Source: an uncultured Lachnospiraceae bacterium (lineage in GTDB: Bacteria; Bacillota; Clostridia; Lachnospirales; Lachnospiraceae). Taken from it: a stretch of DNA of 37,643 nucleotides. Location: positions 1 through 37,643 of the forward strand of contig CACXFV010000033.1 in NCBI GenBank assembly GCA_902767015.1, read 5' to 3'. The translations under genes and the position numbers were made by a program. The notes beneath the pieces are model-generated. The model ran no database searches. It had not been told where the DNA came from and worked only from the letters and a program-made list of their open reading frames with translations. This document shows, one piece after another, positions 7,750 to 33,654 of this stretch; position 1 is the first letter of the stretch; each line of letters opens with the position of its first letter.

Positions 7750-7882
7750 TATTACCCCTTTCTGCACTGCTTTAGTACATATCAAATTGTTACAATTGAA
7801 TTATAGCCTGAAGAAAAAAGACAATCTACTTTTATCATGCTGAAAGATAACACAATCTTGCTTAAAATGAGTTCACTAATGG

Positions 7883-7911
7883 TTGATAAAAAAGGCAACT
7901 AGTGATATACT
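7883..7911 (+). promoter_or_regulatory. Sigma-A type promoter for the radical SAM/AAA/FtsK operon
   Basis: TTGATA (7883-7888), a 17-bp spacer and TATACT (7906-7911) lie about 100 bp before the first gene at 8012. No other comparable promoter is evident before the AraC gene, so this is likely the main promoter for roughly 12.5 kb. I see no regulatory RNA in the leader. Confidence 0.75.
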
Positions 7912-8011
7912 TAATGGTAGCGAATCAACATATAGAGTATCAACAGATAAAGAATTATCTCAGCAAAACCGTTGCATATACTTGCATTGACGGTAGACAG
8001 GAGGCATCCAT

Positions 8012-8641
8012 ATGCAGGAAAGTTGCCTGAAGATATCACACTACATTAAAAACACCAAGGTATTAGGACCTTACAATAGGGCTGCTTTGTGGGTACAGGG
8101 CTGTCTGCGTCACTGTGAAGGATGTCTTGCACGACAGATGAATGAGGAACAGCCGGAGATACGTCCTGTTTCAGAGCTGGCAGATATTTTCGCAGCCGCA
8201 GGTGATACAGAGGGCATTACCATAAGTGGTGGGGAACCCTTCTTGCAGGCAGGTGGTCTGGCAGAGATGGTGGAGAAAATAAAAAGACAGCGTGATTATG
8301 GCGTGATTGTATACACCGGATATGATTATGAACAGCTCATGCAGGAGAATAATGAAGATATACACAGATTTCTTAAGCAGATAGATATATTGATAGATGG
8401 AAAGTATATCAGGGAATTGGATGACGGTCTTCCCTACAGAGGTTCTAAAAACCAGAGAATCCTTAATCTCTCCCCGAGGTATACGCAGATAATGGAAGCC
8501 TATTATTATGGAACAGACAAGAGAAATATTGAGATTAATGTCACGGAAAACAGAGCATATCTGGTAGGTGTTCCATCGAAACAGGGATTTGAAGTGTGGG
8601 AAGAATTTAGAAAAAAGGCAGGTGGCAAGGGTGCAGTTTGA
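8012..8641 (+). CDS. NrdG/PflA-like radical SAM activating protein
   Basis: The 209-residue protein starts at an ATG preceded by AGGAGG at 7 bp. It has the radical SAM cluster motif CX3CX2C at Cys31, Cys35 and Cys38 (CLRHCEGC) and the SAM-binding GGEP at residues 73-76. The later IDILIDGKYI and RGSKNQR segments are typical of anaerobic ribonucleotide reductase activases (NrdG). Such proteins cleave SAM to a 5'-deoxyadenosyl radical and install a glycyl radical on a partner. The length and lack of a ferredoxin insert fit the NrdG branch, which carries a single 4Fe-4S cluster. No glycyl-radical enzyme is encoded in this window. The gene instead leads an operon of coiled-coil proteins and ATPases, so its target is unknown. 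The last codons overlap the next gene by 11 bp, which indicates coupled translation. Confidence 0.9.
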   Translation: MQESCLKISHYIKNTKVLGPYNRAALWVQGCLRHCEGCLARQMNEEQPEIRPVSELADIFAAAGDTEGITISGGEPFLQAGGLAEMVEKIKRQRDYGVIVYTGYDYEQLMQENNEDIHRFLKQIDILIDGKYIRELDDGLPYRGSKNQRILNLSPRYTQIMEAYYYGTDKRNIEINVTENRAYLVGVPSKQGFEVWEEFRKKAGGKGAV

Positions 8642-9620
8642 GTTAATGGCGAAGGATTATATCAGGTTATACTTTTTGAATGAGGTATTACATACAAAAA
8701 CAACGGAGTTTTACCTCTATATCGAGATAGAAGACAGTGAGACAAATTTTTTGGACATCAAGTCCGGCATCGGTGTTTACAGATTTAATAATTTTAACAT
8801 AGCAGAGGATATCACCAGTAATTGTATCACTTTCCGGCCGATTATCGTAGGCTGTTATACGTATTTCAGGATTGACGGGAATACCCCCACCATCGTAGAA
8901 ATTGTCAGAAATGGTTCGGGTAATGTGTCAGAGACTTTTACGCTTTCGGAGGGGGAGAGCAAGCTTGTGCTTGTCCCACAGGGAAGTAAAAAATATATTG
9001 TAACGGTCAGTGATGAGAACATAAAGGCAGAGAAAAAGATGCGGCCGACCCTAAAGGCAGAGAAAGAGATACGACCGGCGCCAAAGGCAGAAGGGTGGGA
9101 TTCATTTAGCGGTAGACACAAGGTTCAGGAGGATACAGAAGAGAAGGTTACCTCTGACAGCGGGCAATGCCACACAGATCAGTTACACAAAGAACAGTTA
9201 TACAAAGAACAGTTACACACAGAAATCAATAGCAGGCACCGGGCGGAAATCGATAATGCCTCACTAAATAAAGATATCGAAGAATTGAAGGAGCAGATAG
9301 AAGCATTAGAACAGTCAAACCGCCTGCTCGAGGAAAAAAGGCAAAATTTGAAGGACACACTTGTCAAAATGAAAGATGAGTATGACAAGAATTATGCCGG
9401 ATATGAGAGTGAATTAAAGGAGCTTCAGTCAAGGTATGCGGTGGATAAAGAAATTTTACTGATGTATTCAGACAGCAAAGTCATGCCGATAGAAGAACTG
9501 CTTGCAAGAGCGGAGACAGCAGTGACCCGGGTAGAGGAGCAGGTAAGATTACTAATCGCAGCAAAGCAGAAAAAGACTGCGCAGATTGAAGATGAGTTAC
9601 AGATAGGCAGAAAAGAGTAG
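8631..9620 (+). CDS. Unknown protein: beta-rich N-domain plus C-terminal coiled coil
   Basis: No family recognised. The chosen GTG start at 8631 has an AGGTGG-like site 5 bp upstream and overlaps the radical SAM stop; it gives 329 residues. ATG 8646 is the alternative. Residues 1 to about 130 alternate short hydrophobic strands (FYLYIEIED, GIGVYRF, YTYFRIDG, SKLVLVP, KKYIVTV) and suggest a beta-sandwich. Residues of about 135-150 repeat a KAEK-x-x-RP unit, and residues of about 180-195 repeat a QL(H/Y)KE unit. The rest, from about 200, is a long charged heptad coiled coil (IEELKEQIEALEQSNRLLEEKRQNL and onward; only part is quoted by pattern here). It contains no signal peptide or membrane span. 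By position it is a structural or adaptor subunit of the ATPase operon. Confidence 0.8.
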   Translation: MQFELMAKDYIRLYFLNEVLHTKTTEFYLYIEIEDSETNFLDIKSGIGVYRFNNFNIAEDITSNCITFRPIIVGCYTYFRIDGNTPTIVEIVRNGSGNVSETFTLSEGESKLVLVPQGSKKYIVTVSDENIKAEKKMRPTLKAEKEIRPAPKAEGWDSFSGRHKVQEDTEEKVTSDSGQCHTDQLHKEQLYKEQLHTEINSRHRAEIDNASLNKDIEELKEQIEALEQSNRLLEEKRQNLKDTLVKMKDEYDKNYAGYESELKELQSRYAVDKEILLMYSDSKVMPIEELLARAETAVTRVEEQVRLLIAAKQKKTAQIEDELQIGRKE

Positions 9621-9634
9621 CCGGTGGTGAGAGA

Positions 9635-11068
9635 ATGGATGAGGTATGGCAATTAGAGCGTCAGATAGACAGTCTTCAAAGTGAGATACAGTTTCAAAAT
9701 GAGCAGGCATATAGAATGCGAAATCAGCTTGCACAGGATAGTTTAAAAAAGCTTCAGGAATATCAGGCGCAGATGGAGTCAGCGTTAGACAGGCATGATA
9801 AAATGGTGCGCAAGGAATACGAAAAACGCCTGAAGGAGTACCAAAACAGTGTTAATGATGAATTAGAGCATAAGCAGCTTAAGATGGATATTGAATATCA
9901 GCAATTATTGATTAGCACAAAGGAGAAGGAAGAAGAGTGGAAAAGTAAGACCAAAAAGCTGCAGACCCTCATTGATGAACTCAGGCAGAATGAGAATCAC
10001 AAAGAAACTGTATCGGTCAATGACGCCAAAAAATATATGACACAGGCAGTAATCGCCTATAAGAAAGTAGAAAAAAAGCCACATGAAAAGTTTTTTCCTA
10101 AAAGAATCACGGTATATTATAACGCGATAAGAGAAGCGAGAACCTTATTTGACAGAGGACTTTATGAGGCGGCCATTGCCATTTCCATTTCGGCAAAATC
10201 CGGTGTGAGCAGACTTGTCTTTGATATTGATGATGCATTGGAAGAGTGGCAGAGACAATTTGCCATATTAAAGACGAAGGCAGAGGCATTATCCTTTAAG
10301 CTTGCGGAGGAAATTGATACATGGTGTGTTCATTCCGGCAGTATATCAGATAGTGATGGGGCAAAAAAGACCATGAATTTCTGGTCAAAAGGGGCATACG
10401 GAAACATATACCGCTATGTGAAGCAATTGGAAACGGAGTTAACACAGGCGCAAAAGTCAGGATTAGAGAGCTATCTCAAAGAAGAAAAAAGTATGTCCTC
10501 AGAGGAGATTAAGAAGCATATTCGTCAGCTCGACGACTTTGACAGTGACTTTGACAATATCTGTCATCTGTGTAAAAGCAGATATGAAGCGGCCTGTGAG
10601 AGGCAGGATTTTGGTGAAAAGATTATTGATTATCTGATTGATGAGATTAATTTAAGCTTCGTGGAGGCAGAGAGTCATTTCAAGGCAGCGGCGTCTGGGG
10701 TTTTGGAAAGTGATGATTACAGACAATACATGGAGTATTTCTTTGGAGCAGGTTATGAGACATCAGATATGAGGGAATGGCTTGAACTCGTGTTTGAAAA
10801 TTCTTCCGGTACCAGAATCTTTATTTATATTGTTCCGGATGAGCAAAAGGAAGAAGTTGCCAACAGAATTGTTTTATATATTGACTGCGGGACATCTGAA
10901 CATGCAGAATATGCCCGACAGATTTACAGGCACATCTGTGAGAGTATAGGGGTGGAGGAGGAATCTGATATCATTACTTTTGCACAGAATATAGAGCAAT
11001 TGACAATGAATTATGATAAAGTACTTGGTGCTGCAGGAGAATCCATAGAGAAAAAAATAAGAAAGTAA
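9635..11068 (+). CDS. Coiled-coil protein A, paralog of the next gene
   Basis: No named family recognised. The 477-residue protein starts 14 bp after the preceding gene. Residues 1 to about 130 are an unbroken charged coiled coil. Residues of about 160-330 are helical, with a TPR-like stretch (AIREARTLFDRGLYEAAIAI, from residue 164). The C-terminal 150 residues are mixed alpha/beta (KIIDYLIDEINLSF near residue 328, then TRIFIYIVPDE, then NRIVLYIDC). The same three-part layout, with recognisable sequence correspondences, occurs in the following gene, so the two appear to be diverged duplicates. There is no membrane segment or signal peptide. It is likely an oligomeric scaffold partner of the AAA+ and FtsK-type ATPases; that is inferred from context only. 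Confidence 0.82.
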   Translation: MDEVWQLERQIDSLQSEIQFQNEQAYRMRNQLAQDSLKKLQEYQAQMESALDRHDKMVRKEYEKRLKEYQNSVNDELEHKQLKMDIEYQQLLISTKEKEEEWKSKTKKLQTLIDELRQNENHKETVSVNDAKKYMTQAVIAYKKVEKKPHEKFFPKRITVYYNAIREARTLFDRGLYEAAIAISISAKSGVSRLVFDIDDALEEWQRQFAILKTKAEALSFKLAEEIDTWCVHSGSISDSDGAKKTMNFWSKGAYGNIYRYVKQLETELTQAQKSGLESYLKEEKSMSSEEIKKHIRQLDDFDSDFDNICHLCKSRYEAACERQDFGEKIIDYLIDEINLSFVEAESHFKAAASGVLESDDYRQYMEYFFGAGYETSDMREWLELVFENSSGTRIFIYIVPDEQKEEVANRIVLYIDCGTSEHAEYARQIYRHICESIGVEEESDIITFAQNIEQLTMNYDKVLGAAGESIEKKIRK

Positions 11069-11084
11069 ATGCAGGAGGTGCAGG

Positions 11085-12599
11085 ATGAGTGGTGTAGCAG
11101 GTGGAATTATTTTATTACCATATGTATTTTCAATAATTGCGGCAAAGATGACGGTTGCGGCAACGGATGCAGCGTTAAAGCGGGTGACAGATGAGACAGG
11201 AATGTATTATCAATATTCTAAAATCAGAGAGGAGGCACAGTTAAGACAGAGTGGTGCAGAAAGGCAGCTAATCGATGCCAGAAGCATGGTACAGGCTGAC
11301 CTGCAGTCACAGGCGAGGCTTCAAAAGGAAGTATCAGATAACGTGTTGCAGCAGATTGAATTACAGCGCAGGGAAATAGCAGGAAGGCTTGAGAAGGCTG
11401 ATGAGGAGGAATACAAAGAATATCTTAATCAGTTAAGTGATGCGGGGATGGAGCTTACGAACCGCATTGAGACAATGCAGGCAGAGTTTGTGAATCATTA
11501 TCACGCGAAGATTCAGGAGAGTATGGGAACGGTTACCAATGCCATTAATATTCAGTACGGCACATATCTGGAGGAGCTTTCACAGTACAAAGATAATCTC
11601 AATGCCAAAAAAGAGCTTGCTGCAGGAATGGCAGGTGATTACATCAAAGAAGCAGAAGCACTTTTGCTATCTCTGGTGGAAGACTATGAGGGAGAGCGTT
11701 ATGCAGGCTTTGCACTTAAGGAATTAAGGGAGGCACTTGACGCAGCAAGAGAGCAGTATCAGTCAGGCAATTATGAGGCAGCCCTTGCGACGGCGAAGGA
11801 TGTGTCTGTGAATGTCATTGAAGAGATTTATAAGGCAGATTGTAAGGGGAGAGAATGGGGAAGCTATTATCAATATGCCTGCCTACTGGCAGATGAGCTT
11901 GAGGTCTATATCATTTCCCAGGATACCATCACGCAGGAGATAAAGGAAGAAGCAGAAAAGGCGGCAGGAAGAAGCTTTGAAGATGAGATTGTAGGGATTC
12001 GCATCAGTGAATATACAGAGCTTATGAAGTCTGGAAATGGGATGCACAGATATGATTATCTGTTGGAAAAGACGAGAGAGTTAAAGAGGCTTCTGCAATC
12101 AGAGGATATTAAATCAGCCGATACAGACCAGTTGAAGGAATATATCCATTTATTAAATGATGAATTGTATCCGGCTGTCACAAAAACAATTTACAAGGGA
12201 ATCCTCAATATGAATAATGCCTTTTCAAGACAGAATATCAGTGAGGAAATCATTGATTTTTTTGAAGAACATAATTTTAATTTTGACGGCTATTCTTATG
12301 ATGAAGACAGACATGACGGGGCATTGCATATCGGACTGTCAAATGATACAACCGGAGAAGAAATTGTGGTGACACTGGCGCCAGAGTTGGTGGGAGGCGG
12401 AGATATTCGGACGAAGGTGGAGATTCACCAGCTAAAAGGGGACGAAACCAATGAGGAGAGAAAAGAATATTACAGAACCGGTGTACAACAGGTAGTGTTT
12501 GAAAATACGCCGGGGGCACAGATACATTTAGAATGTGATAAATCCACGAAAAACCGATTGTCTGAAAAGACAGAGCTGCGGGATAAAATCAAGGGATAG
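11085..12599 (+). CDS. Coiled-coil protein B with hydrophobic N-terminus, paralog of the preceding gene
   Basis: No named family recognised. The 504-residue protein has a strong GGAGG site 6 bp before its ATG. Residues 3 to about 25 are hydrophobic (GVAGGIILLPYVFSIIAA), a possible membrane-associating helix without a signal-peptidase site. A coiled coil rich in Gln, Glu and Ala follows to about residue 200. A TPR-like stretch (ELREALDAAREQYQSGNYEA, from residue 213) matches the equivalent part of the upstream gene product. The C-terminus has IIDFFEEHNFNFDGYS near residue 386 and then a strand-rich segment. If the N-terminal helix inserts, this protein could tether the otherwise soluble operon products to the membrane. 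Function unknown. Confidence 0.82.
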   Translation: MSGVAGGIILLPYVFSIIAAKMTVAATDAALKRVTDETGMYYQYSKIREEAQLRQSGAERQLIDARSMVQADLQSQARLQKEVSDNVLQQIELQRREIAGRLEKADEEEYKEYLNQLSDAGMELTNRIETMQAEFVNHYHAKIQESMGTVTNAINIQYGTYLEELSQYKDNLNAKKELAAGMAGDYIKEAEALLLSLVEDYEGERYAGFALKELREALDAAREQYQSGNYEAALATAKDVSVNVIEEIYKADCKGREWGSYYQYACLLADELEVYIISQDTITQEIKEEAEKAAGRSFEDEIVGIRISEYTELMKSGNGMHRYDYLLEKTRELKRLLQSEDIKSADTDQLKEYIHLLNDELYPAVTKTIYKGILNMNNAFSRQNISEEIIDFFEEHNFNFDGYSYDEDRHDGALHIGLSNDTTGEEIVVTLAPELVGGGDIRTKVEIHQLKGDETNEERKEYYRTGVQQVVFENTPGAQIHLECDKSTKNRLSEKTELRDKIKG

Positions 12600-12616
12600 T
12601 GTTATAGGAGATTGCG

Positions 12617-15600
12617 ATGAGTTCTATTCTTGAGAGAACAGATTTGAACAGAATATATCTGATATATGGACATCTGGATGATATGTTTATATCGGGCAAT
12701 TTGCAGGTGAATAATTTCAGACCGTTTTTGAACGGATATTTAAAAAGCCTTGGCTATGAGCAGATTGTCTTTTATTCCGGTGCCAAAAATGTCGGAAAAT
12801 TTGTCATGGATGATGAGAGTGCGATGCTTGCCATTAACAAAAATAAGAGAATTATGTCAGAGAATCAGCAGGTGTACCGGGATGATGCCCGTGATACTTA
12901 CACAGCCCTCAGGCAGGCGGATACTATGGTGAGTGTACCAAAAAGAAAGCGGAGGATTTTAAATCCAAGAGTGCGCGGCACGGCAAATGCCGGTGTAGAA
13001 GCACAAAAGGAGCAAATTACCTATTCTTCTGCAGAAGTACAGACGGAAGTCTATCCTTCCGGCAGGGAAAATAGCAGCAGGGAAAATACCGCTGAAAGTG
13101 TTAGTACAGACAAGAGAAGAAAGCTTATCTATAAGCAGCCGAAGATTACACCCATAGAATTTCTTGAGGATGCAAAAAAAATCATGGCGGATACAACACA
13201 CAAGTCGGCAATTGTCTTTACTTTCTTTCAAGACTTTGTCACAGACAGAACCGCACCATTGCAACCGTATTTAGAGCTTGTATCCCATTTGTGGGATGAG
13301 TACAGCAGTAACAGTAATGAGAATATCTGTATCTTTCTGGCACCCCAGATGTCCACAAAGGATTTGAGCGATATGTTCGACAATATGGAGAACGGATATG
13401 TGCTCAAGAACCGTTTCTTTAACGCTGACGGAACTGCCAACAGAGGAACGACAATCGAGGTGGGGCTTCCCAATGATGATGAGGTAGGCTATCTGTTAGA
13501 ATACTTAAGAATCGTGGGGGATAAAGGTAAACGCATCACGTTCCGGCAGAGTGGAAAAAAGAGGATTGTCTCTTCTATATTGTATTATAGCAGGGAGAAA
13601 GACAAGTCAGAGAACCGCTCCGGTTTTTTAAATGCCGTTTACAACGATTTGGTATATTATATGAGACGGTCGGATACCGCTATAGTAAATATAGATGATG
13701 AGGCTGTGACAAAAATATATGGCAGTGACAAAAAGCAGGAGATGGCGTCGCCCCTTGAACAATTGAAAAATACCAGGGGTTGGGAGAGTGTGGCAGAAAG
13801 AATCAATGAGATTATCAGAGATTATCACATCAAAAAAGAAGAATATGAGAAGAAATATGCGAAGCAGTCCTCACTGGAAAAGCATCAAAATCATGCGTAT
13901 TCTAACGAACGGATAGATAAAGAAAACGGAAAGGAAGGCTTCCTTTATCAGGTGCCCCATTTTATTATACGAGGCAATCCGGGCGTGGGCAAGACTACAG
14001 TGGCAAGATTAATCGGAAAAATCTTTTATGATGAGGGGATGCTTCGGAAAGGAGATACCATCGAGGCAAAAAGAGATGACCTTGTGGATGCTTATGTAGG
14101 AGGAACCGCCATCAGAACAACGGAGTGCGTTGAGCGGGCAACGGAAGGTGTTCTTTTTATTGATGATGCTTACTCATTGTTAGAGAAAGGAGAGGAGCAT
14201 AATTTTGCAAAAGAGGCCATTGATACACTGGTTCCGATTATGACGAATCCGGACCGGTATCGTTTTTGCATGATTATGGCAGGTTATCCGGAGTTGATGG
14301 ATGAACTGTTGGCGATGAATCCGGGACTCAAAAGCAGATTCAGCAATGCAAACATTCTGACCATTGAAGATTATCCGCCGGATTTATTAAAAGATATTTT
14401 CATCAAAGAATGTCATAAGGACGGATACCGGTTATCACAGGAGATGGATTTAGCGTTGTTTTTTAACAACCTTTACGGGCAGCGCAACAGGGCGGATTTC
14501 GGAAATGCAAGAGATATCGTGGCAATTGCGAAAGAAGTGAAGCTTCAGTGCAGCCTGAGAGATAATACGACAAGATGTATTATCAGGGAAGATTTTGGAG
14601 ATTATCAGAAATATTTTATCAGGCAGGGGGTATCCTCCATTGATGAAATATATGCAAAACTGGACACCTATGTGGGAATGGAGTTTGTAAAAGATTTATT
14701 TAAGAGTGTGAGATTTGAGCTATTGGACGTGATGGATAGCAAGAGCCGGGGAATCAAGCCGGAGACATATCCGGAGCATTATATATTTGCCGGCAATCCG
14801 GGAACTGGAAAGACAACTGTGGGCAAAATGATAGGCGAATTTTACCATATAATGGGTGTACTGGGAGCAGCACAGACATTGTTTGCGGATGCCTCTGACA
14901 TCATTGGTAATCATGTGGGAGATTCAAAGGATAAAGTTACTGCGCTCATGCAAAGAGCAATTGACCATAATCAGGTATTATATATAGACGAGGCATACCA
15001 GATTTCGGAATCAGCCTATGGCAATGAAATTATAGGCGCCATGATGACGAAAATGACAGAGAATGCAGATGACTTCAGGGTGATATTCGGCATGTACACC
15101 AATAAAGTTGAGAATTTTTTAAAGCTGAATGCCGGTCTTCCCAGAAGGCTTAGAATTGTTGAATTTCCGGACTATACCCCGGAGCAGCTGACAGAGATAT
15201 TTGACAGGACAATAGAGGCTGCCGGCTGTACGATTACGCAGGAGGCACACGAGAGAGTCGCGAAGATTTTTAAGTATCTGTACAGTGTAAGAGGAGAAGA
15301 TTTTGGCAATGCGGGAGAAGTCAAAAAACTGGCGGCAGACATGAAAAGACGGCGGCTTGAGAGGGTGTATTCTTCAGCACTGGAGGGTGAGGAAAAATAC
15401 AGATATGAGCTTTCGGATATCCCACAGAAGCTGCTGGAGCTTACAAAAGCACAGGCAGGTGAAAAATCCTTTGAGGATATTATGAAGGAATTAAAGGACC
15501 AGATTGGTATGTCAGATTTAAAGGATATTGTGCTACAAAAGCAGGAGGAAATCTTATATGCCAAAAAAAGTGGCGAATCGACAGAAGATATTTGCCCGGG

Positions 15601-16309
15601 ATATTATTTCTTTGTAGGAAATCCGGGTACCGGAAAATCCACAAGTGCACAGTTATTTGCCAATTGTCTGTATCGGCTTGGCATTGTGAAGACGGATAAA
15701 TTCTATTCCTGCACAGCGAAGGATTTAATCGGACAATATGTGGGTGAGACGGACAAAAAGACGTATGAATTACTGCAAAAATCGGTCAACAGTGTATTGT
15801 TCATTGATGAGGCATACAGTCTTTCGTATTCAGACGGCTATTCAGATGGCGGATTCAAGAAAGAGGCATTAGAGCAGATGATTGCATTTATGGATCAGTC
15901 TGAGCACAGAAAGAATTGCTGCATTGTTTTTGCAGGCTATGAGAAGGATATGCAGGGATTATATAAATCCAACAGCGGAATGCGCTCAAGAATTGAGGAG
16001 GTTCATTTCAGAGACTATTCTGCAGAGGAATTATACGAGATATTTAAGCTGTTTTGCCAAAAAAATGGATTTCAGGTCAGTGAAGGGGTGGAGAAGGTAT
16101 ATATCCCCATATTTGCAAAGCTAAAGGAGCTTACCTATTTTTCCAATGGCAGAACGGCAAGAACCATCTATGAAAAGACGATTATCAATATGAAGCGTAG
16201 AATTGTGAGAAGTGACGATATCCCGAAGGGCGGGGAACGACTGGTGATAGGGGAAGATTTGTTGTCAGAGGAGGACGCTGTAAGGATAATCGGGGCAGAT
16301 GGCAATTGA
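12617..16309 (+). CDS. Triple CbxX/CfqX-type AAA+ ATPase with degenerate N-terminal module
   Basis: The 1230-residue protein has a TAGGAG site 6 bp before ATG. It contains three AAA+ modules of the CbxX/SpoVK/EccA class at a regular spacing of about 275 residues. Module 1 has Walker A GNPGVGKT at 453-460 and Walker B VLFIDDAY at 512-519. Module 2 has GNPGTGKT at 726-733 and VLYIDEAY from 787. Module 3 has GNPGTGKS at 1001-1008 and VLFIDEAY from 1060. Each is followed by sensor and arginine segments such as SRF or SRI. Residues 1 to about 330 contain alternating strands and helices (RIYLIYGHLDDMF, then KSAIVFTFFQDF, then NICIFLAPQM) like a P-loop-less NTPase, probably a degenerate fourth module. 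There is no transmembrane segment. CbxX-type proteins remodel protein complexes: Rubisco activase CbbX, and EccA in type VII secretion. A remodelling role for the neighbouring coiled-coil proteins is inferred. Confidence 0.92.
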   Translation: MSSILERTDLNRIYLIYGHLDDMFISGNLQVNNFRPFLNGYLKSLGYEQIVFYSGAKNVGKFVMDDESAMLAINKNKRIMSENQQVYRDDARDTYTALRQADTMVSVPKRKRRILNPRVRGTANAGVEAQKEQITYSSAEVQTEVYPSGRENSSRENTAESVSTDKRRKLIYKQPKITPIEFLEDAKKIMADTTHKSAIVFTFFQDFVTDRTAPLQPYLELVSHLWDEYSSNSNENICIFLAPQMSTKDLSDMFDNMENGYVLKNRFFNADGTANRGTTIEVGLPNDDEVGYLLEYLRIVGDKGKRITFRQSGKKRIVSSILYYSREKDKSENRSGFLNAVYNDLVYYMRRSDTAIVNIDDEAVTKIYGSDKKQEMASPLEQLKNTRGWESVAERINEIIRDYHIKKEEYEKKYAKQSSLEKHQNHAYSNERIDKENGKEGFLYQVPHFIIRGNPGVGKTTVARLIGKIFYDEGMLRKGDTIEAKRDDLVDAYVGGTAIRTTECVERATEGVLFIDDAYSLLEKGEEHNFAKEAIDTLVPIMTNPDRYRFCMIMAGYPELMDELLAMNPGLKSRFSNANILTIEDYPPDLLKDIFIKECHKDGYRLSQEMDLALFFNNLYGQRNRADFGNARDIVAIAKEVKLQCSLRDNTTRCIIREDFGDYQKYFIRQGVSSIDEIYAKLDTYVGMEFVKDLFKSVRFELLDVMDSKSRGIKPETYPEHYIFAGNPGTGKTTVGKMIGEFYHIMGVLGAAQTLFADASDIIGNHVGDSKDKVTALMQRAIDHNQVLYIDEAYQISESAYGNEIIGAMMTKMTENADDFRVIFGMYTNKVENFLKLNAGLPRRLRIVEFPDYTPEQLTEIFDRTIEAAGCTITQEAHERVAKIFKYLYSVRGEDFGNAGEVKKLAADMKRRRLERVYSSALEGEEKYRYELSDIPQKLLELTKAQAGEKSFEDIMKELKDQIGMSDLKDIVLQKQEEILYAKKSGESTEDICPGYYFFVGNPGTGKSTSAQLFANCLYRLGIVKTDKFYSCTAKDLIGQYVGETDKKTYELLQKSVNSVLFIDEAYSLSYSDGYSDGGFKKEALEQMIAFMDQSEHRKNCCIVFAGYEKDMQGLYKSNSGMRSRIEEVHFRDYSAEELYEIFKLFCQKNGFQVSEGVEKVYIPIFAKLKELTYFSNGRTARTIYEKTIINMKRRIVRSDDIPKGGERLVIGEDLLSEEDAVRIIGADGN

Positions 16310-16375
16310 GAAATGGCAATGACAGAATAAAGGAAAGAATGAAGCACCGGATAACAGACGGAAAGTGAGGACAGA

Positions 16376-16684
16376 ATGGAAGGCAGAAAAGGAGATAGAC
16401 AGGAAGATAGAATAGAAGATAGAAAAGAGAGTATCTGGAAGGATTTTGATTTTCCTACCCTCGACCCTATTTTGGTGTCACATGATTATAATGTGCATCG
16501 GGAGAGCGGGAATACTCAATATATGGAGACTCAAAATAATGACACTCGAAACAATGAAGTGCAAAACAATGGGACTCGAAACACTTCAGGTGGAATGAAA
16601 AAAGAACTATATGGCGAAAATATCGATGATCTCGCATATGAGGATATTGATTGGGATGATTTTCCGGCATTGACAGAGTCATGA
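16376..16684 (+). CDS. Small acidic Asn-rich protein between the two ATPase genes
   Basis: No family recognised. The 102-residue product is hydrophilic and probably largely disordered. Its start has GTGAGG 5 bp upstream. Two similar short motifs flank the centre: WKDFDFPTLD near residue 22 and DWDDFPALTE at the C-terminus, sharing W-x-D-F, then P-x-L. Between them lies an imperfect Asn/Thr/Arg repeat (QNNDTRNN and QNNGTRNT). This layout resembles a flexible linker carrying two copies of a docking peptide, which would fit an adaptor or substrate for one of the flanking ATPases. It lies 66 bp after the AAA+ gene. Coding status is supported by position, reading frame and ribosome binding site, but not by homology. 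Confidence 0.65.
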   Translation: MEGRKGDRQEDRIEDRKESIWKDFDFPTLDPILVSHDYNVHRESGNTQYMETQNNDTRNNEVQNNGTRNTSGGMKKELYGENIDDLAYEDIDWDDFPALTES

Positions 16685-16698
16685 AAATAACAGACTGC

Positions 16699-16748
16699 GA
16701 CCGGTTATGAATGCATGGTAACCGGTCAGGAAGCGTCGGACAGACGCT
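16699..16748 (+). promoter_or_regulatory. Two tandem perfect hairpins before the FtsK-type gene
   Basis: Hairpin 1 pairs 16699-16707 with 16719-16727 (9 bp, 11-nt loop). Hairpin 2 pairs 16732-16737 with 16743-16748 (6 bp, 5-nt loop). Neither is followed by a T run, so they are not intrinsic terminators. They could be an RNA processing or stability element that sets the ratio of upstream to downstream gene product in the operon. Confidence 0.55.
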
Positions 16749-16784
16749 ATGGCATATTAATGGAAGTAGGAAATGAGGATGACG

Positions 16785-19700
16785 ATGAATAAACCACTTA
16801 CAGAACAGGATTTAATCAATGTTAAGGATGAGCACAGGCTGGTCATGGATATATTTCATGAATTTGAGGGACTGGCAAAGGAATATGCAAAAGAGTGCGC
16901 TAAGATTAATGAAGAATATGACAGGACACTAAAGGAAATTGACCGTGAAATGGAAGTCATACACAATGAGAGCAAAAATGACTTTGAAAAGAGGCTGTCA
17001 GCGCTGGAGCGGGAGAAAAATCTTAAGGTTAACCGGTGGGATGAAGAATTTAAGTCGGCGCAAAAAGATAATCAGCAGAAGCGGGAGCAGGCGCAGAAGG
17101 AGCGCGAAGCGGTGATAGACAATGCTTCCATGTACAAGATTGATATAAGCTATAAGATTAATGAGGAGAAGAAAAAGCTCACTGAATATATGGATATGAT
17201 CACAGAGGCAGAGAACGCCATTGCAACAAAGAAATATTTTAAGATTATTGCCATGAACCAGACGAAGGTACCGGTGGAGGGAGAATCACTTAAGGAGCTG
17301 GTACAAAGAAATCCCATGAGAATGGTACTGGCAATCAATCAATTAGATGATCAGGTGATTGACAGATTTCGCCATGGTGCCGAACTTAAAGAAAAATCAA
17401 TAGAGTTTTATTCCTATAAGTGCAAGGCAGTGGACATATATAAGAGAGAAATGGCAAAGCTGAATTCTATCATGCCCGATGTAGAAAAAGAAATCTTTGA
17501 CAAGACAGAGGAGGCCGCAAGGCGTATGAAGGAAGCCGTGGCAAAGCTGGATGAAGAGATGGCAAGGCGCAAGGAGGAGTATGTGGCAAAATCTACGGAG
17601 ACAGAGGTGGAATTTAACAGGAACAAAGAGAAAATAACGGAGGAATATACCGCAAAATGCGTGGAGGCTGATAAAAGTGCTGAGGAAAGAAGAACACAGG
17701 CACTTCTTGTGATGAATCATTCTCTGCCTCAGGCATTAAAGCGTTATCAGGAAAGCAACATCCAAATGCTGCCGCCTCACCTTCTGAAAAAATTGGCAGA
17801 CATGTTAATGGCGGAAAAAATAAACAGTGTAGCGGACTATGAGCTAAAGAAGGAGGAGCCACAGAATTGTACGGTGGGATTTGTGTATTTTATGTTTAAA
17901 CAATTTCTGCCGGATGAGGCATCATTAAAGTTTATGACAGCCAATTATGAGTTTATTCTGAAGAAAGGTTGTTTTATCCTTCCGTACGCACTGGCAGTGA
18001 ATGAAAGTCTTGCGCTGTGTTATGAATACGATAACGCGGGGGCGGAGACGGCAGGTCAGACCATGCAGACAATCTGTATGAAATTGTTATTGGATACCCC
18101 GCCCAATAAAATCCGGTTTCAATTTTTTGATCCGCTGAAGTCAGGCCATACCTTTGCCATGTTTAAACATTTTGAGGAGGAAAACAGTTCCGGTGTCAAA
18201 ATCATCATGGGTGGGATACACACAGAGGAGCATGATATTGAACAGCAGCTTCAGGTTATCGTTGACCACATTAAGTCAATGCAGGTGAATAATTTTAAAG
18301 GACAATATTCCAATATCAGAGAATATAATGCGGCAAACAAACTGAATCCACAGCCGTACAATATAGTCGGAATTATGGATTTTCCGGCAGGCTTCTCAAA
18401 GAGAGCGATAGAACTTTTAAGTCAGGTGGTGGCTACCGGTAAAGCATGTGGTGTCTACACGATAGTGATGTGCTCTAAGGAGCAGATGTGGAATGTAGAG
18501 TACAGGACCAAGAGTGTCATCGCCGGCATTAAGAAAATGTGCAGTACCTTTCGATATGTGGCACCGGGGTTTGAGCGTGTCACACCGGAGGAAATTGACA
18601 GACAGATGGAACAGTCGGGTGTCACATATGAAGCATCGGAAGGAAGCAAATTGCAGGAGCCGGACATTCATGAAGAGAATGTGCGGTACGTCATTGATCC
18701 GCCGTTAGATATCAGCCGGATATTGACGATTGCCCCTGTCATGAGGGAAGCGATTAAAGAGGCAGGAAGAATTGTAATTGATTACGACAACATTATGCCA
18801 AAGAAGGAGCATTATTATCAGGCAAACACAGCAGAAGGAATATCCATTCCAATCGGGTTGACAGGTGCCAGCGAGATACAGACATTAAATTTAGGAATGC
18901 CGGGAAGCCAGTCGGTGCATGCATTAATCTGTGGGCAGATTGGAAGCGGAAAGAGCAGACTGTTACATGCCATTGTCACAGGTGCGCTCATTTCGTATAC
19001 CAAAGAAGAGCTGGAGGTATATCTGATTGATTTTAAGAGTGGCACCGAATTTAAGATTTATGCGGACTATAATCTGCCGAATTTTAAGGTGATTGCCATT
19101 GAGAGTGAGCAGGAATTTGGTCTGAGTGTTCTTCGTGCCATCAAGCAGGAGGGTGAACGCAGGGCGCAGATATTTAACATGTGTACCAAGAGTGATATCA
19201 CCTCCTACAACAATAGCCCGGAGGCATCAAAATATGGAAAAATGTCCAGAGTTCTCATTGTCATTGATGAATTTCATATGCTGTTCTCGGAGGAGAACAA
19301 AGAATATGCCGACGAGGCTTCAAGACTGATGGAGGAAATTCTGCGGCTGAACAGGAGCTTTGGTTTTCATCTGGTACTCTGTTCACAGAGCATAAGAGGC
19401 ATGTCTGCTCTTGATGAGGCAACACTGGCACAGGTGGCAGTACGTATTGCTTTGAAATGCCCGAGAGAAGATGCTGAAATTTTATTGGGGAAGGGAGCGG
19501 ATGCCATTGCGCAGATTGAGGAGAATGATGCAGGCTCTGCCATCTATCTGCCTTCTATCAGTACACCAAACAATCATAATAAGTTCCGGGTAGGTTATTT
19601 AAGTCCGGACAGGCACAAGGAAATATTGAAAAATATTGAAGAGCATTATAATGAAATAGGCGAATATACGGAGGCAAGAGTGCTGGTATCAGATGTATCG

Positions 19701-20513
19701 GACAGCAGAAACAGTGTATTTCAGCGGTATTATACGGACGGAGAGATTATATCACAAAACAGAGTTCTTCATTTTGGTGAGCCATTAAAGGTAGAATCAG
19801 AGCTGGAGGTAAGATTTGAGCAGACGATTGCCAATAACATGCTGCTGATTGGCAAAAATATTCAAAAAGCACAGAATATATTGTTTTTTGCTACGTTAGA
19901 TATTGTTCTCTATAAAGTTTTGCAGCAGAGAAGAGAAAAAAACTCTGCCAACATTTATGTGTTGAACTATTGTGATGGTGCCAATACGAATTTCAATGAC
20001 AAGCTGCAGGAGTTAGGAATGTCAGTACCCCAGCTGATTCATTATTATGATGGTGCCGGTGCCATTGGTGCCATAGAAGCGCTCTATGAGCGGTTTGACA
20101 ATAAGACAAGCGAGGATACGGATGACTGGATTGTGATATCCAACCTTGCCCTGGCGAGCTATTTAAGTGAAAGCAGTTTCAATAAAAAGGACAGTAAGCT
20201 GGTGAGTGATTTTGAGAGGATGCTTTTAGAAGGACCGGGAAAAGGAATGTTCTTTATCGTGTGGTGTGATAATCCTGCAATTTACAGGGCAAAATTCGGA
20301 TATACCTTTGAACATTTTGGCAAGAGAATCGTATTCAATGTGACACCACAGGATGCACTTGAGTTTGCTGATATTGTAGAGGATGACAGTATCAACAGAA
20401 ATAATGCATACATATGGCAGGAGGGGAAGGGAAAAGAAAAATTCCGACCATATGATGCGCCTATGGACAGTTGGTTTAGAAGATTGTGTGATGAGTGCCT
20501 GTGTGTGGAATAA
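16785..20513 (+). CDS. FtsK/SpoIIIE-type ATPase with N-terminal coiled coil and three ATPase-like modules
   Basis: ATG 16785 has GAGG 6 bp upstream and gives 1242 residues; the in-frame ATG at 16773 is too close to its site. Residues 1 to about 330 are a charged coiled coil. A first FtsK-like module (about 360-620) has lost its P-loop. The central module is intact, with Walker A GQIGSGKS at 717-724, Walker B VLIVIDEFH with Asp828/Glu829, and the LVLCSQS sensor strand. A third C-terminal module has a strand and turn LLIGKNIQKAQN where a P-loop would be, so it is also degenerate. The tandem arrangement resembles EccC/EssC of type VII secretion, but there are no transmembrane helices and no FHA domain. 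FtsK/HerA-class motors move DNA or peptides through a hexameric ring; which one applies here is open. It is the last gene of the operon. Confidence 0.92.
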   Translation: MNKPLTEQDLINVKDEHRLVMDIFHEFEGLAKEYAKECAKINEEYDRTLKEIDREMEVIHNESKNDFEKRLSALEREKNLKVNRWDEEFKSAQKDNQQKREQAQKEREAVIDNASMYKIDISYKINEEKKKLTEYMDMITEAENAIATKKYFKIIAMNQTKVPVEGESLKELVQRNPMRMVLAINQLDDQVIDRFRHGAELKEKSIEFYSYKCKAVDIYKREMAKLNSIMPDVEKEIFDKTEEAARRMKEAVAKLDEEMARRKEEYVAKSTETEVEFNRNKEKITEEYTAKCVEADKSAEERRTQALLVMNHSLPQALKRYQESNIQMLPPHLLKKLADMLMAEKINSVADYELKKEEPQNCTVGFVYFMFKQFLPDEASLKFMTANYEFILKKGCFILPYALAVNESLALCYEYDNAGAETAGQTMQTICMKLLLDTPPNKIRFQFFDPLKSGHTFAMFKHFEEENSSGVKIIMGGIHTEEHDIEQQLQVIVDHIKSMQVNNFKGQYSNIREYNAANKLNPQPYNIVGIMDFPAGFSKRAIELLSQVVATGKACGVYTIVMCSKEQMWNVEYRTKSVIAGIKKMCSTFRYVAPGFERVTPEEIDRQMEQSGVTYEASEGSKLQEPDIHEENVRYVIDPPLDISRILTIAPVMREAIKEAGRIVIDYDNIMPKKEHYYQANTAEGISIPIGLTGASEIQTLNLGMPGSQSVHALICGQIGSGKSRLLHAIVTGALISYTKEELEVYLIDFKSGTEFKIYADYNLPNFKVIAIESEQEFGLSVLRAIKQEGERRAQIFNMCTKSDITSYNNSPEASKYGKMSRVLIVIDEFHMLFSEENKEYADEASRLMEEILRLNRSFGFHLVLCSQSIRGMSALDEATLAQVAVRIALKCPREDAEILLGKGADAIAQIEENDAGSAIYLPSISTPNNHNKFRVGYLSPDRHKEILKNIEEHYNEIGEYTEARVLVSDVSDSRNSVFQRYYTDGEIISQNRVLHFGEPLKVESELEVRFEQTIANNMLLIGKNIQKAQNILFFATLDIVLYKVLQQRREKNSANIYVLNYCDGANTNFNDKLQELGMSVPQLIHYYDGAGAIGAIEALYERFDNKTSEDTDDWIVISNLALASYLSESSFNKKDSKLVSDFERMLLEGPGKGMFFIVWCDNPAIYRAKFGYTFEHFGKRIVFNVTPQDALEFADIVEDDSINRNNAYIWQEGKGKEKFRPYDAPMDSWFRRLCDECLCVE

Positions 20514-20528
20514 TGGGAGACGATGTAT

Positions 20529-21410
20529 ATGAAGCATGAAGACTTTTTAAAGTATGAAGAAAAGACAAAGCATGGCAGTTATCTGCTTCCATTTGTCATT
20601 TATGGTACCATCATTCCTGACGGATTAAAATATTTTCCGGCCCACTGGCATGATGAGATGGAGATAGTATATGTGAAGGCGGGACATTGCACCTATTATG
20701 TAGACTTTCAGTCTTATGAGGTATATGAGGGAGATGTTCTGATTATTCCGCCTGCGTTTATTCATTCCTTTGAACAATATCGTGATGAGCGTTTTGAGTC
20801 AAGAGTGATTGTGTTTAAATTTGACATGGTAAACAACAGTAAGCCGGATATGTGCTCTAAAAAGTATTTTATGCCTCTTTTTAACAATGAACTTCAACTT
20901 CCTTTTTATATAAAAAAAGATAACACTGACACAAAAGTGGTGGGAGAAACGGTAAGAAAAATCATTGATACTTATTATGGACGAAACTATGGATATGAGC
21001 TGAGATTGAAGATGTATTTACTGGAATTTTTCACCTTCTTTTTTGAAAATGGCCTGATCAATAAGAATAAAAGCCGTCTGACAGGTTCAAAATCAACAGA
21101 GAATACAAAGGCAGTGATTGAATACATTGAAAGGAATTATAAGAAAAAAATAACATTAGACGAATTAGCGGATTTTACCAGTCAGAGTGTGTATAATCTG
21201 GCACATACCTTCAAGAAAAGTACGGGACACAGTCCGGTGGAATATATCAATAACTACAGATTATCCATGGCGGCAAAGATGTTAGAGGATACAGACAGTA
21301 CTATCCTCGGCATTGCCATTGAGAATGGATTTAATAATGTGTCCTACTTTAACAGGGCATTCAAAAGTACATTTGGCATGACACCGTCTGAATATAGAAA
21401 GGGAAAATGA
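20529..21410 (+). CDS. AraC family transcriptional regulator with cupin sensor
   Basis: The protein has 293 residues from ATG 20529, which sits 9 bp after GGGAG; the ATG at 20523 is only 3 bp from it. The N-terminal half is an AraC-binding cupin (PAHWHDEMEIVYVKAGHCTY, then GDVLIIPPAFIHSF) that probably senses a small molecule through His residues. The C-terminal 100 residues hold the paired HTH domain (ITLDELADFTSQSVYNLAHT, then ILGIAIENGFNNVSYFNRAF, then TPSEYRKGK). It begins 15 bp after the FtsK-type gene on the same strand, so it may be co-transcribed with the operon and could regulate it or the protease gene behind it. The target is not evident. Confidence 0.92.
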   Translation: MKHEDFLKYEEKTKHGSYLLPFVIYGTIIPDGLKYFPAHWHDEMEIVYVKAGHCTYYVDFQSYEVYEGDVLIIPPAFIHSFEQYRDERFESRVIVFKFDMVNNSKPDMCSKKYFMPLFNNELQLPFYIKKDNTDTKVVGETVRKIIDTYYGRNYGYELRLKMYLLEFFTFFFENGLINKNKSRLTGSKSTENTKAVIEYIERNYKKKITLDELADFTSQSVYNLAHTFKKSTGHSPVEYINNYRLSMAAKMLEDTDSTILGIAIENGFNNVSYFNRAFKSTFGMTPSEYRKGK

Positions 21411-30435: not shown

Positions 30436-30462
30436 AGGTTGCACAAAATATTTTTCTTTGCC

Positions 30463-30490
30463 TTGACAAAAATGGATTGCGTGTTATACT
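30463..30490 (+). promoter_or_regulatory. Sigma-A type promoter for the thrS T-box leader
   Basis: A perfect TTGACA (30463-30468), a 16-bp spacer and TATACT (30485-30490), with the T-box leader beginning directly downstream. Confidence 0.85.
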
Positions 30491-30496
30491 TAAAAT

Positions 30497-30752
30497 TAAT
30501 CGAAACAGATAACACGTTGATGAGAAGAGTAAGTATTGTGTAAGATGCAGAGAGAGATGGGAAGCTGTGAACATCTTATCGGAGCAATACCGAAGACTAC
30601 CTCGGAGTGACCCCAATCCGGTCCGTTGATTACGTTACAATCATTAGAGTGATGCAGAACATTGCCGAGGTGTGGTATTTTTCTGTGTAATTAGGGTGGA
30701 ACCGCGAGATATCGTCCCTTATGGCATGAAAGCCATAAGGGATTATTTTTTT
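30497..30752 (+). promoter_or_regulatory. T-box riboswitch (tRNA-Thr sensing leader of thrS)
   Basis: The 336-bp gap before thrS is mostly this leader. It contains the AGAGA-type box and Stem I region (about 30550-30620), the T-box sequence AGGGTGGAACCGCG at 30693-30706, and a terminator at 30715-30752. The T-box pairs with the acceptor end of uncharged tRNA to form an antiterminator, so thrS is expressed when Thr-tRNA is scarce. The Stem I specifier should be a Thr codon; ACT at 30596-30598 and ACC at 30599-30601 are both present in the right area, and I cannot tell which is bulged without folding. Confidence 0.93.
30715..30752 (+). terminator. T-box-controlled intrinsic terminator
   Basis: An 11-bp perfect stem (30715-30725 with 30732-30742), a 6-nt loop and a T-rich tail (30743-30752) directly before the thrS ribosome binding site. 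Confidence 0.93.
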
Positions 30753-30771
30753 GAGAAAGGAAGGATTTATT

Positions 30772-32733: not shown

Positions 32734-32756
32734 TTTAGATTGTAAGAGGTGTCAAT

Positions 32757-33605
32757 TTGAAGGATAAGAATAATCTTTTTTTGATAGTGCTAAGCGTTGT
32801 CACTGTGATGAATGCGGGTTTATGCGTATGGCTGATTGCCCAGAAAAACAGTGAAAATAGAGCCATTACAGCACTCAATAACAGTATCGACAGATATCAT
32901 GAAAAATATGGAAGCAAAGAGGCAGACACCGGTGTGACAGCAGACACACCGGCTGCTTTAGAGCCTTCGGGGGAGGGAAACAAAGAAGTGAGCGAAAATA
33001 ACATCAAAGAATCTGAGGAAGAGGAGTTTTACTACGAGCCTGTCAGTGATGAACTTAAGCGCTATATGGACGGAAAATCATATCGGGAAAATGACAGGAT
33101 TTCCTATGATGATTTAGCACATGTGGTGGTGAAATATATTGATTTTGACTGGAACGTCCGAGAGGGAGAACTGATTGTCAACAAAAAAATCGCTCAGGAT
33201 GTTGTAGATATTTTCAAAGAGTTATATAATGAAAAGTATCAGATAGAAAAAATCAGGCTGGTAGACGAGTATAATGGTGATGATGATGCTTCTATGGCGG
33301 ACAATAACACATCCGCATTTAATTACAGGGTAATTGATGGGACGGATGAGATTTCAGATCATGGTTATGGCCTGGCAATTGATATTAATCCACTCTACAA
33401 TCCCTATGTGAGAACTGATTTTGGTGACAGAAATGTTCTGCCGGTCAATGGTGCACAATATGCTGACAGGTCAAAAGAATTTGAGCATAAGATTGTAAAA
33501 GAGGATGTCTGCTATAATGCCTTTACAAAGAGAGGCTTTCTGTGGGGCGGAGAATGGGATTCTCCTGTGGATTACCAGCATTTTTATAAAGAGCCTGAGG
33601 ATTAA
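32757..33605 (+). CDS. Membrane-anchored M15 family peptidase (D-Ala-D-Ala carboxypeptidase-like)
   Basis: The TTG start has GAGG 7 bp upstream and gives 282 residues. Residues 4-28 are a hydrophobic signal anchor, followed by a Ser/Glu-rich linker of about 70 residues. The catalytic domain shows the M15 zinc motif SxHxxGxAxD (SDHGYGLAID, with His202 and Asp209) and the third ligand His275 in the C-terminal DYQHFY. These place it with the Ply118/CwlK-like M15C group, which cleaves peptidoglycan cross-links. It is probably extracellular and wall-acting. The domain is complete and the gene ends 49 bp before the Nudix gene. Confidence 0.92.
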   Translation: MKDKNNLFLIVLSVVTVMNAGLCVWLIAQKNSENRAITALNNSIDRYHEKYGSKEADTGVTADTPAALEPSGEGNKEVSENNIKESEEEEFYYEPVSDELKRYMDGKSYRENDRISYDDLAHVVVKYIDFDWNVREGELIVNKKIAQDVVDIFKELYNEKYQIEKIRLVDEYNGDDDASMADNNTSAFNYRVIDGTDEISDHGYGLAIDINPLYNPYVRTDFGDRNVLPVNGAQYADRSKEFEHKIVKEDVCYNAFTKRGFLWGGEWDSPVDYQHFYKEPED

Positions 33606-33654
33606 AAGCAGTCTGCGAGATGCAGTTGTTTTGTTGACATTTTGGGAGAAAGAA

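What the first reader, a model, noticed from the sequence alone, without database searches (positions are those of the whole stretch)
7883..20513. Seven-gene radical SAM / coiled-coil / triple AAA+ / FtsK-type operon without a known system match
Seen: one good promoter and seven same-strand genes with gaps of -11, 14, 16, 17, 66 and roughly 90-100 bp. They encode a CX3CX2C radical SAM activase, three coiled-coil proteins, a triple CbxX-type AAA+ protein, a small acidic protein and an FtsK-type ATPase. Known: a CbxX-type ATPase (EccA) and a tandem FtsK-type ATPase (EccC) together mark ESX type VII secretion. Inferred: lacking WXG100 substrates and all known membrane components, and gaining a radical SAM enzyme and soluble scaffolds, this looks like a separate NTP-driven assembly for secretion-like transport, DNA handling or defence.
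Basis: partly seen in the sequence, partly recalled or inferred. Interest (0 to 1): 0.85.

Follow-up and report, generated by a model that had tools for sequence, protein, structure and literature searches.

The report
Stripped-down Ter-system motor cassette
A Lachnospiraceae-type bacterium carries, as an inserted block of seven genes, what looks like the motor-and-scaffold core of a larger 'Ter' stress or toxin-handling machine, without the sensor, switch and cargo genes that accompany it in relatives; this could make a poorly understood family of machines easier to dissect.

Summary
The seven genes are real, open and in the order described, but not unmatched. Six of them recur in the same order (radical SAM, beta/coiled-coil protein, two paralogous scaffold proteins, CbbX/SpoVK-type AAA+, later an EssC-like FtsK ATPase) inside Ter-type operons of Butyrivibrio sp. 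AC2005 and an IMG/VR contig, and, split over contigs, in the MAG RUG12891. There they stand with TerD, a vWA/kinase/PP2C switch, Ter biosynthesis genes (one seen on the IMG/VR stretch), a HerA-like ATPase and cargo-like proteins, one with a papain-fold toxin domain. A further Lachnospiraceae MAG (SIG333) has the six genes plus HerA, with no switch or TerD at the locus. The window genome gave no TerD match, and the window has no HerA, switch or cargo match. Its small acidic protein resembles the vWA protein minus the vWA domain. The cluster is an insertion of about 12.6 kb between MATE and AraC genes that are neighbours in two congeners, just after a 35-bp element that lies upstream of araC in one of them. 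Best reading: the actuator core of a soluble, type-VII-like Ter machine without its usual sensor and switch. New variant of a known kind; function is inferred.

The parts
7834..7868 (+). 35-bp element shared with the MATE-araC intergenic region of same-genus genome G182 (31 of 35 identical); possible AraC operator; marks the left edge of the insertion
   Evidence: score 50, 0 of 300 shuffles; weaker in G201 (13 of 300); nothing in G206 (110 of 300); other congeners not compared
7883..7911 (+). candidate promoter TTGATA-17-TATACT with extended -10
   Evidence: consensus match only; 41 sites in the stretch against 32.0 (s.d. 5.8) in shuffles
8012..8641 (+). g1: NrdG/PFL-activase-like radical SAM protein (CX3CX2C)
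   Evidence: 45-56% identical to three relatives; below the NrdG equivalog cut-off (104.5 vs 126.1 bits)
8631..9620 (+). g2: N-terminal beta domain of about 130 aa, low-confidence linker, long C-terminal helical region
   Evidence: AF2 mean pLDDT 75.5; 33, 33 and 25% to three relatives, 42% over 124 aa to a fourth partial copy; no fold match at E <= 0.001; no detectable TerD relationship
9635..11068 (+). g3: helical/coiled-coil scaffold candidate, paralogue of g4
   Evidence: hhalign probability 96.7, E 4e-10; 37-46% to four relatives; coiled coil read from the sequence, not scored
11085..12599 (+). g4: helical scaffold candidate with hydrophobic N-terminus (possible membrane segment) and C-terminal beta strands
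   Evidence: AF2 mean pLDDT 63.9; hydrophobicity peaks 1.74-2.56 in five copies, 1.98 here; 43-48% to four relatives
12617..16309 (+). g5: 1230-aa AAA+ protein of the CbbX/SpoVK/EccA type with three P-loops; the SIG333 copy lacks the middle AAA domain
   Evidence: 62-71% to four relatives, one of them cut at its contig start
16376..16684 (+). g6: 102-aa acidic protein, probable TerY/vWA protein without its vWA domain; keeps N-terminal WKDFDFPTLDP and C-terminal DIDWDDFP
   Evidence: N motif 0 of 5000 shuffles against two of three vWA proteins, C motif 89 and 99 of 5000; third vWA protein not significant (1173 and 377 of 5000)
16773..20513 (+). g7: EssC/EccC-like FtsK-family ATPase, N-terminal coiled coil (read from the sequence), one P-loop, no strong hydrophobic segment
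   Evidence: 44-54% near full length to four relatives
20523..21410 (+). AraC-family regulator, host gene right after the insertion; possibly co-transcribed (inferred)
   Evidence: orthologues (56% and 48%) follow MATE in G182 and G201 without the cluster

Best explanation
The seven genes are the motor-and-scaffold ('actuator') core of a Ter-linked, type-VII-like soluble machine, moved as a cassette into this genome without its TerD sensor, phospho-switch (vWA/kinase/PP2C), HerA partner and cargo. Shown: gene content, order, synteny with Ter-type operons, insertion site. Inferred mechanism: g3 and g4 form a helical platform, anchored to the membrane by the g4 N-terminus; g5, a dedicated AAA+ chaperone of the CbbX/SpoVK clade, remodels or loads a partner by pulling on a tail; g7, a hexameric pump with one active ATPase ring, moves a protein (less likely DNA) through or off the platform; g1 modifies or activates a protein partner by radical chemistry; g6, a tail-only relic of the switch protein, keeps two docking motifs so that the core stays assembled without the switch. 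Expression may be under the local AraC protein, whose operator-like element now lies upstream of g1.
For: Same order of g1-g5 ... g7 in the window, SIG333, Butyrivibrio AC2005 and an IMG/VR contig; in RUG12891 g2-g5 and g7 lie on three contigs and g1 was not read. In AC2005 the same-strand run also holds TerD, ATPgrasp_Ter, C-C_Bond_Lyase, PRTase_2/TRSP, StiP/PELOTA_1, PP2C, Pkinase and VWA. TerD: 0 in the window genome. None of 20 AC2005 operon proteins outside the core matches the window at E <= 0.01; at the SIG333 locus only HerA does; the same queries do find partners on the IMG/VR contig and in RUG12891. g7: one P-loop, hydrophobicity peak 1.33, as described for EssC-like CoCoNuT ATPases (PMC11090510 section 10, read). 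CbbX/SpoVK/EccA clade members are described as dedicated chaperones (PMC10659427, passages). Cargo: the IMG/VR protein next to HerA has a papain-fold glutamine-deamidase toxin domain (E 8.1e-14) and shares a 136-aa N-terminal trunk (41%) with the AC2005 protein. Insertion.
Against: No phenotype or complex has been shown. The genome is 96.7% complete in 168 contigs, so TerD or switch genes could be missing from the assembly; the vWA search had no positive control in its call. The g4 model has low confidence, and g2 and g4 have no significant fold match. The g6 C motif alone is only nominally significant, and the third vWA protein does not support g6 at all. g7 also matches, more weakly, a DNA translocase coupling protein. 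The radical SAM substrate is unknown.
Confidence: 0.6

Rival explanations
1. A decaying remnant: a Ter operon arrived whole or in part and lost sensor, switch, HerA and cargo; the seven genes have no present function.
For: HerA, switch, cargo and TerD genes have no match in the window; g6 looks like an internally deleted gene; patchy distribution.
Against: The seven reading frames are open over 12.6 kb, P-loops and CX3CX2C kept; the SIG333 locus also lacks TerD and switch genes yet keeps the same six genes, though whether the two losses are independent was not tested; g6 kept both ends.
Confidence: 0.2
2. A phage- or element-defence system in which g7 pumps or senses invading DNA and the AAA+ protein and radical SAM enzyme deliver a toxic modification.
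For: PADLOC matches of g7 to SspH (2e-17) and mad8 (2.1e-14), of g5 to IetA (4.1e-13) and of g1 to pVip (1.4e-5); TerY-P-like modules act as anti-phage systems according to PMC11090510 (passages); weak match of g7 to a DNA translocase coupling protein.
Against: No nuclease family above cut-off among the seven proteins; the best solved relatives of g7 are the secretion ATPases YukB and EccC5; g1 scores 104.5 bits with NrdG and 20 with viperin.
Confidence: 0.15
3. An accessory loading system for the separate WXG100/FtsK locus on contig C107 of the same genome (EccA-like role for g5).
For: Three WXG100 matches, a YukD protein and an FtsK-type ATPase on C107; g5 matches EccA models and the EccA1 structure.
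Against: The core recurs with its own pump and Ter genes; SIG333 has the core but no WXG100 match.
Confidence: 0.05

Closest known systems
Ter-dependent stress-response operons (TerD, TerY-P triad, Ter biosynthesis genes; Anantharaman et al. 2012, known here only through PMC11090510 and recall)
   Same: In Butyrivibrio AC2005 and an IMG/VR contig g1-g5 and g7 are inside such an operon
   Different: The window has no match to the TerD, kinase, PP2C, vWA, HerA or biosynthesis proteins of AC2005, and its genome no TerD match
EssC-like and SpoVK-like extensions of type III-A CoCoNuT operons (PMC11090510, section 10 read)
   Same: EssC-like ATPase with N-terminal coiled coil and one active domain; a SpoVK-family tandem AAA+ protein next to a protein with a glycine-rich hydrophobic part (C-terminal there, N-terminal here)
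   Different: There they are alternative extensions; here both ATPases are in one cluster with a radical SAM protein and g2/g3; g5 has three P-loops instead of one active domain of two; no McrBC-type or CARF family among the 18 window proteins scanned
Type VII secretion (EccC/EssC, EccA)
   Same: g7 domain 2 is related to EccC and YukB, g5 to EccA
   Different: g7 has one P-loop and no strong hydrophobic segment; no WXG100 on the window contig
vWA-MoxR FtsH ternary conflict systems (PMC7159879, passages)
   Same: A radical SAM enzyme beside vWA and AAA+ proteins, proposed there to modify a peptide effector
   Different: Different AAA+ clade by name; relationship of the radical SAM proteins not tested

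Membership tests
Ter-dependent stress-response system | TerD-domain proteins | tested here: not met
   PF02342: 0 in the window genome; 3 in SIG333 (contigs other than that of the locus), 8 in AC2005 (all on the contig of the locus), 5 in RUG12891
Ter-dependent stress-response system | TerY-type vWA with kinase and PP2C (TerY-P) | tested here: not met
   No match of the AC2005 vWA, kinase or PP2C proteins in the window; vWA query 0 of 2 genomes, no positive control in that call; kinase and PP2C not searched in the rest of the genome; g6 keeps only end motifs
Ter-dependent stress-response system | synteny of the core with Ter-type operons | tested here: met
   AC2005 and IMG/VR contig, contiguous; RUG12891 on several contigs
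Type VII secretion system | EccC/EssC with transmembrane segments and more than one active ATPase domain | tested here: not met
   one P-loop, hydrophobicity peak 1.33; 92.5, 68.2 and 42.9 bits against cut-offs of 509, 778 and 347
Type VII secretion system | WXG100 substrate genes at the locus | tested here: not met
   the four PF06013 matches of the window genome lie on C107 and C131
CoCoNuT type III-A extension | EssC-like ATPase: N-terminal coiled coil, only domain 2 active | tested here: met
   one P-loop at 721; coiled coil read from the sequence, not scored by a program; description
CoCoNuT type III-A extension | McrB/McrC-type core (CnuB/CnuC) | tested here: not met
   none among the 18 window proteins scanned with Pfam; genes beyond 30435 and the rest of the genome not scanned
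SpoVK (TIGR02881) | equivalog score from a single SpoVK-type AAA domain | tested here: inconclusive
   455.1 bits against 422.95, but summed over three domains of a 1230-aa protein
NrdG (TIGR02491) | equivalog score | tested here: not met
   104.5 against 126.1 bits

The most novel reading that the evidence does not exclude
Genes g1-g5 plus g7 are a portable, self-sufficient soluble type-VII-like loading or export machine that Ter operons have wrapped in sensors, switches and toxin cargo; in this genome it runs without TerD, HerA or phosphorylation, held together by a vWA-less docking peptide (g6) and put under a captured AraC element, with a radical SAM enzyme that chemically modifies its scaffold or passenger.
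Probability: 0.25. Interest if true: 0.8.

Novelty: new variant of a known kind. Interest (0 to 1): 0.6.

Why it matters
What Ter systems do is a long-standing open question; tellurite is an unlikely natural target (PMC8115787, passages). A natural seven-gene version, and a second locus with the core plus HerA, strip the problem to a motor-and-scaffold core that can be expressed and tested. The link between the Ter switch, an EssC-like pump and a toxin-domain protein in relatives makes effector handling a testable function of these operons. The vWA-less g6 points to two short motifs as possible docking sites.

Tried and rejected
ESX/type VII membership: rejected on P-loops, hydrophobic segments and WXG100 position. 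NrdG for anaerobic ribonucleotide reduction: below cut-off; a glycyl-radical-like pattern in g2-g5 and g7 gave one weak match in g5. g2 as a TerD domain: hhalign probability 0.1%. Fold searches of g2 and g4 in PDB and of g4 in viral models: no match at E <= 0.001. Profiles of g4 and g3 against PDB sequences: best E 0.0043 and 0.0092, not convincing. Plasmid searches with g3 and g4: no match. First genome-contig scan, single g7 sequence: nothing; second, two-row alignment: four loci, three near full length. Viral-contig scans with two g7 alignments, g5 and g1: nothing; with g4: one contig; with a piece of that contig's HerA: the same contig. PHROGs: g7 matches FtsK/SpoIIIE-like phage families, g1 a phage NrdG family. 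Literature: no paper held three or more of TerD, CbxX, SpoVK, radical SAM, EssC, StiP; other searches. The 2012 Ter paper is not held, so whether it already mentions these genes in Ter operons is open.

The IMG/VR vWA protein did not support the g6 relation (1173 and 377 of 5000 shuffles); kept as evidence against. The RUG12891 copy of g5 is cut at its contig start, its g2 is partial and its g1 was not read. HerA: the AC2005 copy passes the Pfam cut-off (25.5 vs 23.2), the SIG333 and RUG12891 copies do not (21.3 each).
Full report
OBSERVATION. The seven ORFs are present as described, with gaps of -11, 14, 16, 17, 66 and 88 bp if g2 starts at GTG 8631. Family scans give a radical SAM protein of the NrdG/activase type below the NrdG cut-off, three proteins without a family above cut-off (g2, g3, g4), a CbbX/SpoVK/EccA-type protein with three AAA domains, a small acidic protein without a family, and an FtsK/SpoIIIE ATPase whose nearest NCBIfam models are EccC/EssC at scores far below their cut-offs. 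g7 has one P-loop, g5 three.

CONSERVATION. g1-g5 and g7 recur in the same order in SIG333 (G112): 54, 33, 41, 46, 50 and 48% identity in the longest BLAST segments. There an 894-aa HerA-like protein stands in the place of g6, and g5 lacks the middle AAA domain. Two genome-contig scans were made: the first found nothing; the second found three near-full-length relatives of g7, in Butyrivibrio sp. AC2005, RUG12891 and SIG333, and one partial match. Searching AC2005 and RUG12891 with g5 gave 71 and 66%. In AC2005 g1 starts at 103146 and g5 ends at 111545 of the contig, g7 starts at 124232, all on one strand. A viral-contig scan with g4 gave an IMG/VR contig with g1-g5; the neighbouring stretch of the same contig holds g7 at 44%.

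THE TER CONTEXT. In AC2005 the run is: P-type cation ATPase, seven TerD matches, g1-g5, kinase-like protein (below the Pfam cut-off), protein kinase, vWA, PP2C, coiled-coil protein, Zn-peptidase, ATPgrasp_Ter, HAD hydrolase, HerA-like, 400-aa and 163-aa proteins, g7, vWA, Sel1, membrane protein, C-C_Bond_Lyase, PRTase_2/TRSP, StiP/PELOTA_1, TerD. These Pfam names place it among Ter operons. RUG12891 has matches to 15 of 20 non-core AC2005 proteins on the three contigs searched (not to the Zn-peptidase, the 400-aa protein, the two TerD queries and the P-type ATPase), and five TerD on another contig. The IMG/VR contig has the P-type ATPase, four TerD, kinase, vWA, PP2C, coiled coil, 163-aa protein, HerA-like, 442-aa protein, g7, a second vWA, Sel1 and C-C_Bond_Lyase; no Zn-peptidase, ATP-grasp or HAD match was listed there, and the stretch ends after the lyase. 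The window genome has no TerD match (0; SIG333 3, AC2005 8, RUG12891 5). None of the 20 non-core AC2005 proteins matches the window at E <= 0.01; on 38 kb around the SIG333 locus only HerA does. The TerD genes of SIG333 are on other contigs.

RARITY. g7 at E <= 1e-20: 4 of 200 family genomes, of which the window genome and SIG333 are near full length and two partial; 2 of 9 in the genus, the second partial; 3 of 391 in the class at 1e-30, two of them partial. g4: 2 of 397 family genomes; 1 of 79 genomes of the genus of AC2005, AC2005 itself. g3: 1 of 398 phylum genomes, the window genome. The samples overlap and the first look is heuristic, so these are rough.

g6. Aligned with the vWA proteins of AC2005 and RUG12891, g6 shows matching ends and nothing convincing of the vWA domain. 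Shuffling tests: N-terminal motif 0 of 5000 against both; C-terminal motif 89 and 99 of 5000; against the IMG/VR protein 1173 and 377 of 5000, not significant. In AC2005 and the IMG/VR contig the vWA gene also lies between g5 and g7, which fits. I read g6 as a vWA protein reduced to its two terminal motifs; a chance likeness of the C-terminus alone is possible.

SCAFFOLDS. g3 and g4 are paralogues. g4 has a hydrophobic N-terminus in five copies (peaks 1.74-2.56, here 1.98), so 'soluble scaffold' may be wrong for it. The g4 model is mostly helical with C-terminal beta strands, at low confidence; g2 has a beta domain and long helices. Neither has a significant fold match. g3 keeps C321 and C435, g4 keeps C484, in five of five copies: candidates, no more, for radical SAM targets.

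CARGO IN RELATIVES. The AC2005 400-aa and IMG/VR 442-aa proteins share a 136-aa N-terminal trunk at 41%; their C-termini gave no BLAST match to each other. The trunk is weakly similar to the 163-aa protein of the same operons (E 4e-6 to 0.07 in the five pairs listed, in a database of five sequences). The 442-aa protein carries a papain-fold glutamine-deamidase toxin domain (PF15644, E 8.1e-14); the C-terminal part of the 400-aa protein has no Pfam match. Trunk plus variable toxin end is the plan of polymorphic toxins (general knowledge), which suggests that the pump handles toxin cargo. The window has no match to the 400-aa or 163-aa protein.

INSERTION. Of eight other genus members searched, six have a close orthologue of the downstream S8 peptidase gene (62-75%), two none. 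Stretches around the six were fetched. In two (G182, G201) MATE is followed by araC and then S8 without the cluster, with about 1.1 kb of unexamined sequence between araC and S8 in G201; in three (G204, G205, G206) MATE is next to S8 without araC; in one (G200) MATE lies elsewhere in the stretch. None of the six stretches has a match to g1-g5 or g7 at E <= 1e-10 and over 80 residues. A 35-bp element upstream of araC in G182 matches window 7834-7868, 31 of 35 (0 of 300 shuffles). So about 12.6 kb, roughly 7869-20513, entered between this element and araC, and the araC ORF now starts 9 bp after the stop codon of g7. That AraC controls the cassette is inference.

KNOWN SYSTEMS. Section 10 of PMC11090510 (read) describes three alternative extensions of type III-A CoCoNuT operons: an EssC-like ATPase with an N-terminal coiled coil and only domain 2 active, a SpoVK-like ATPase beside a glycine-zipper protein, and an EccE3-HerA ATPase. 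It cites Anantharaman et al. 2012 for WXG100/FtsK operons near TerY-P. ATPases of these three sorts occur together in the Ter-type operons of relatives (the HerA-like protein was not tested for an EccE3-like part), and two of them in the window. PMC10659427 (outline and passages) places SpoVK, CbbX and EccA in one clade of dedicated chaperones. PMC7159879 (passages) reports a radical SAM enzyme in a vWA-AAA+ conflict system, proposed to modify a peptide. PMC4978471 (passages) reports TerY-P islands with FtsK and WXG in Helicobacter pylori. PMC10853773 (passages) describes HerA/FtsK capture by defence systems. I found no paper describing the radical SAM/g2/g3/g4/SpoVK core, but the library holds open-licence papers only and the 2012 paper was not available.

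VERDICT. A real, conserved module with a known home (Ter operons) but an unusual form: the actuator core without its usual sensor, switch, HerA and cargo. New variant of a known kind. The mechanism is inferred from anatomy.

Noticed in passing
L078:12847-14175 and L023:8055-9257: Ter-type operons of the IMG/VR contig and Butyrivibrio AC2005 carry proteins with a shared N-terminal trunk and different C-termini, one a papain-fold glutamine-deamidase toxin domain; a 77-aa ORF without Pfam match follows in the former (possible immunity gene, untested).
   Followed up: partly
L017 (contig C107 of the window genome): A separate locus with an FtsK-type ATPase, a YukD protein and WXG100 proteins, so the genome probably has a conventional type VII system.
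   Followed up: partly
L054, L055, L056, L057, L058: Relatives of the radical SAM protein sit beside or near AAA ATPases on plasmids: with FHA, kinase and phosphatase genes in Aristaeella, PIN and AAA genes in Moellerella and Photobacterium, DUF1257/DUF2997 genes in Paenibacillus, contractile-injection genes in Treponema (by record annotation). In Geminocystis (L053) no AAA gene is adjacent.
   Followed up: partly
L015:2806-12442 and L019:7862-17778: Distant relatives of g7 (1497 and 1460 aa) lie near WXG100-like ORFs (25.2 and 25.6 bits, just below the cut-off of 27.3) and Prok-JAB proteins.
   Followed up: partly
L011 (Caballeronia plasmid pSBC2-5) and L013 (Helicobacter plasmid): Other g7 relatives lie with WXG100, VWA, PP2C, kinase and CARF genes, or with HNH endonuclease and SMI1/KNR4 genes, by record annotation.
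   Followed up: no
L014:14146-16872: The SIG333 copy of g5 lacks the second AAA domain in frame, so three ATPase domains are not needed for conservation.
   Followed up: partly
window 28597-36756: A run of same-strand ORFs; the first has no Pfam match at 0.001 and the rest were not examined.
   Followed up: no
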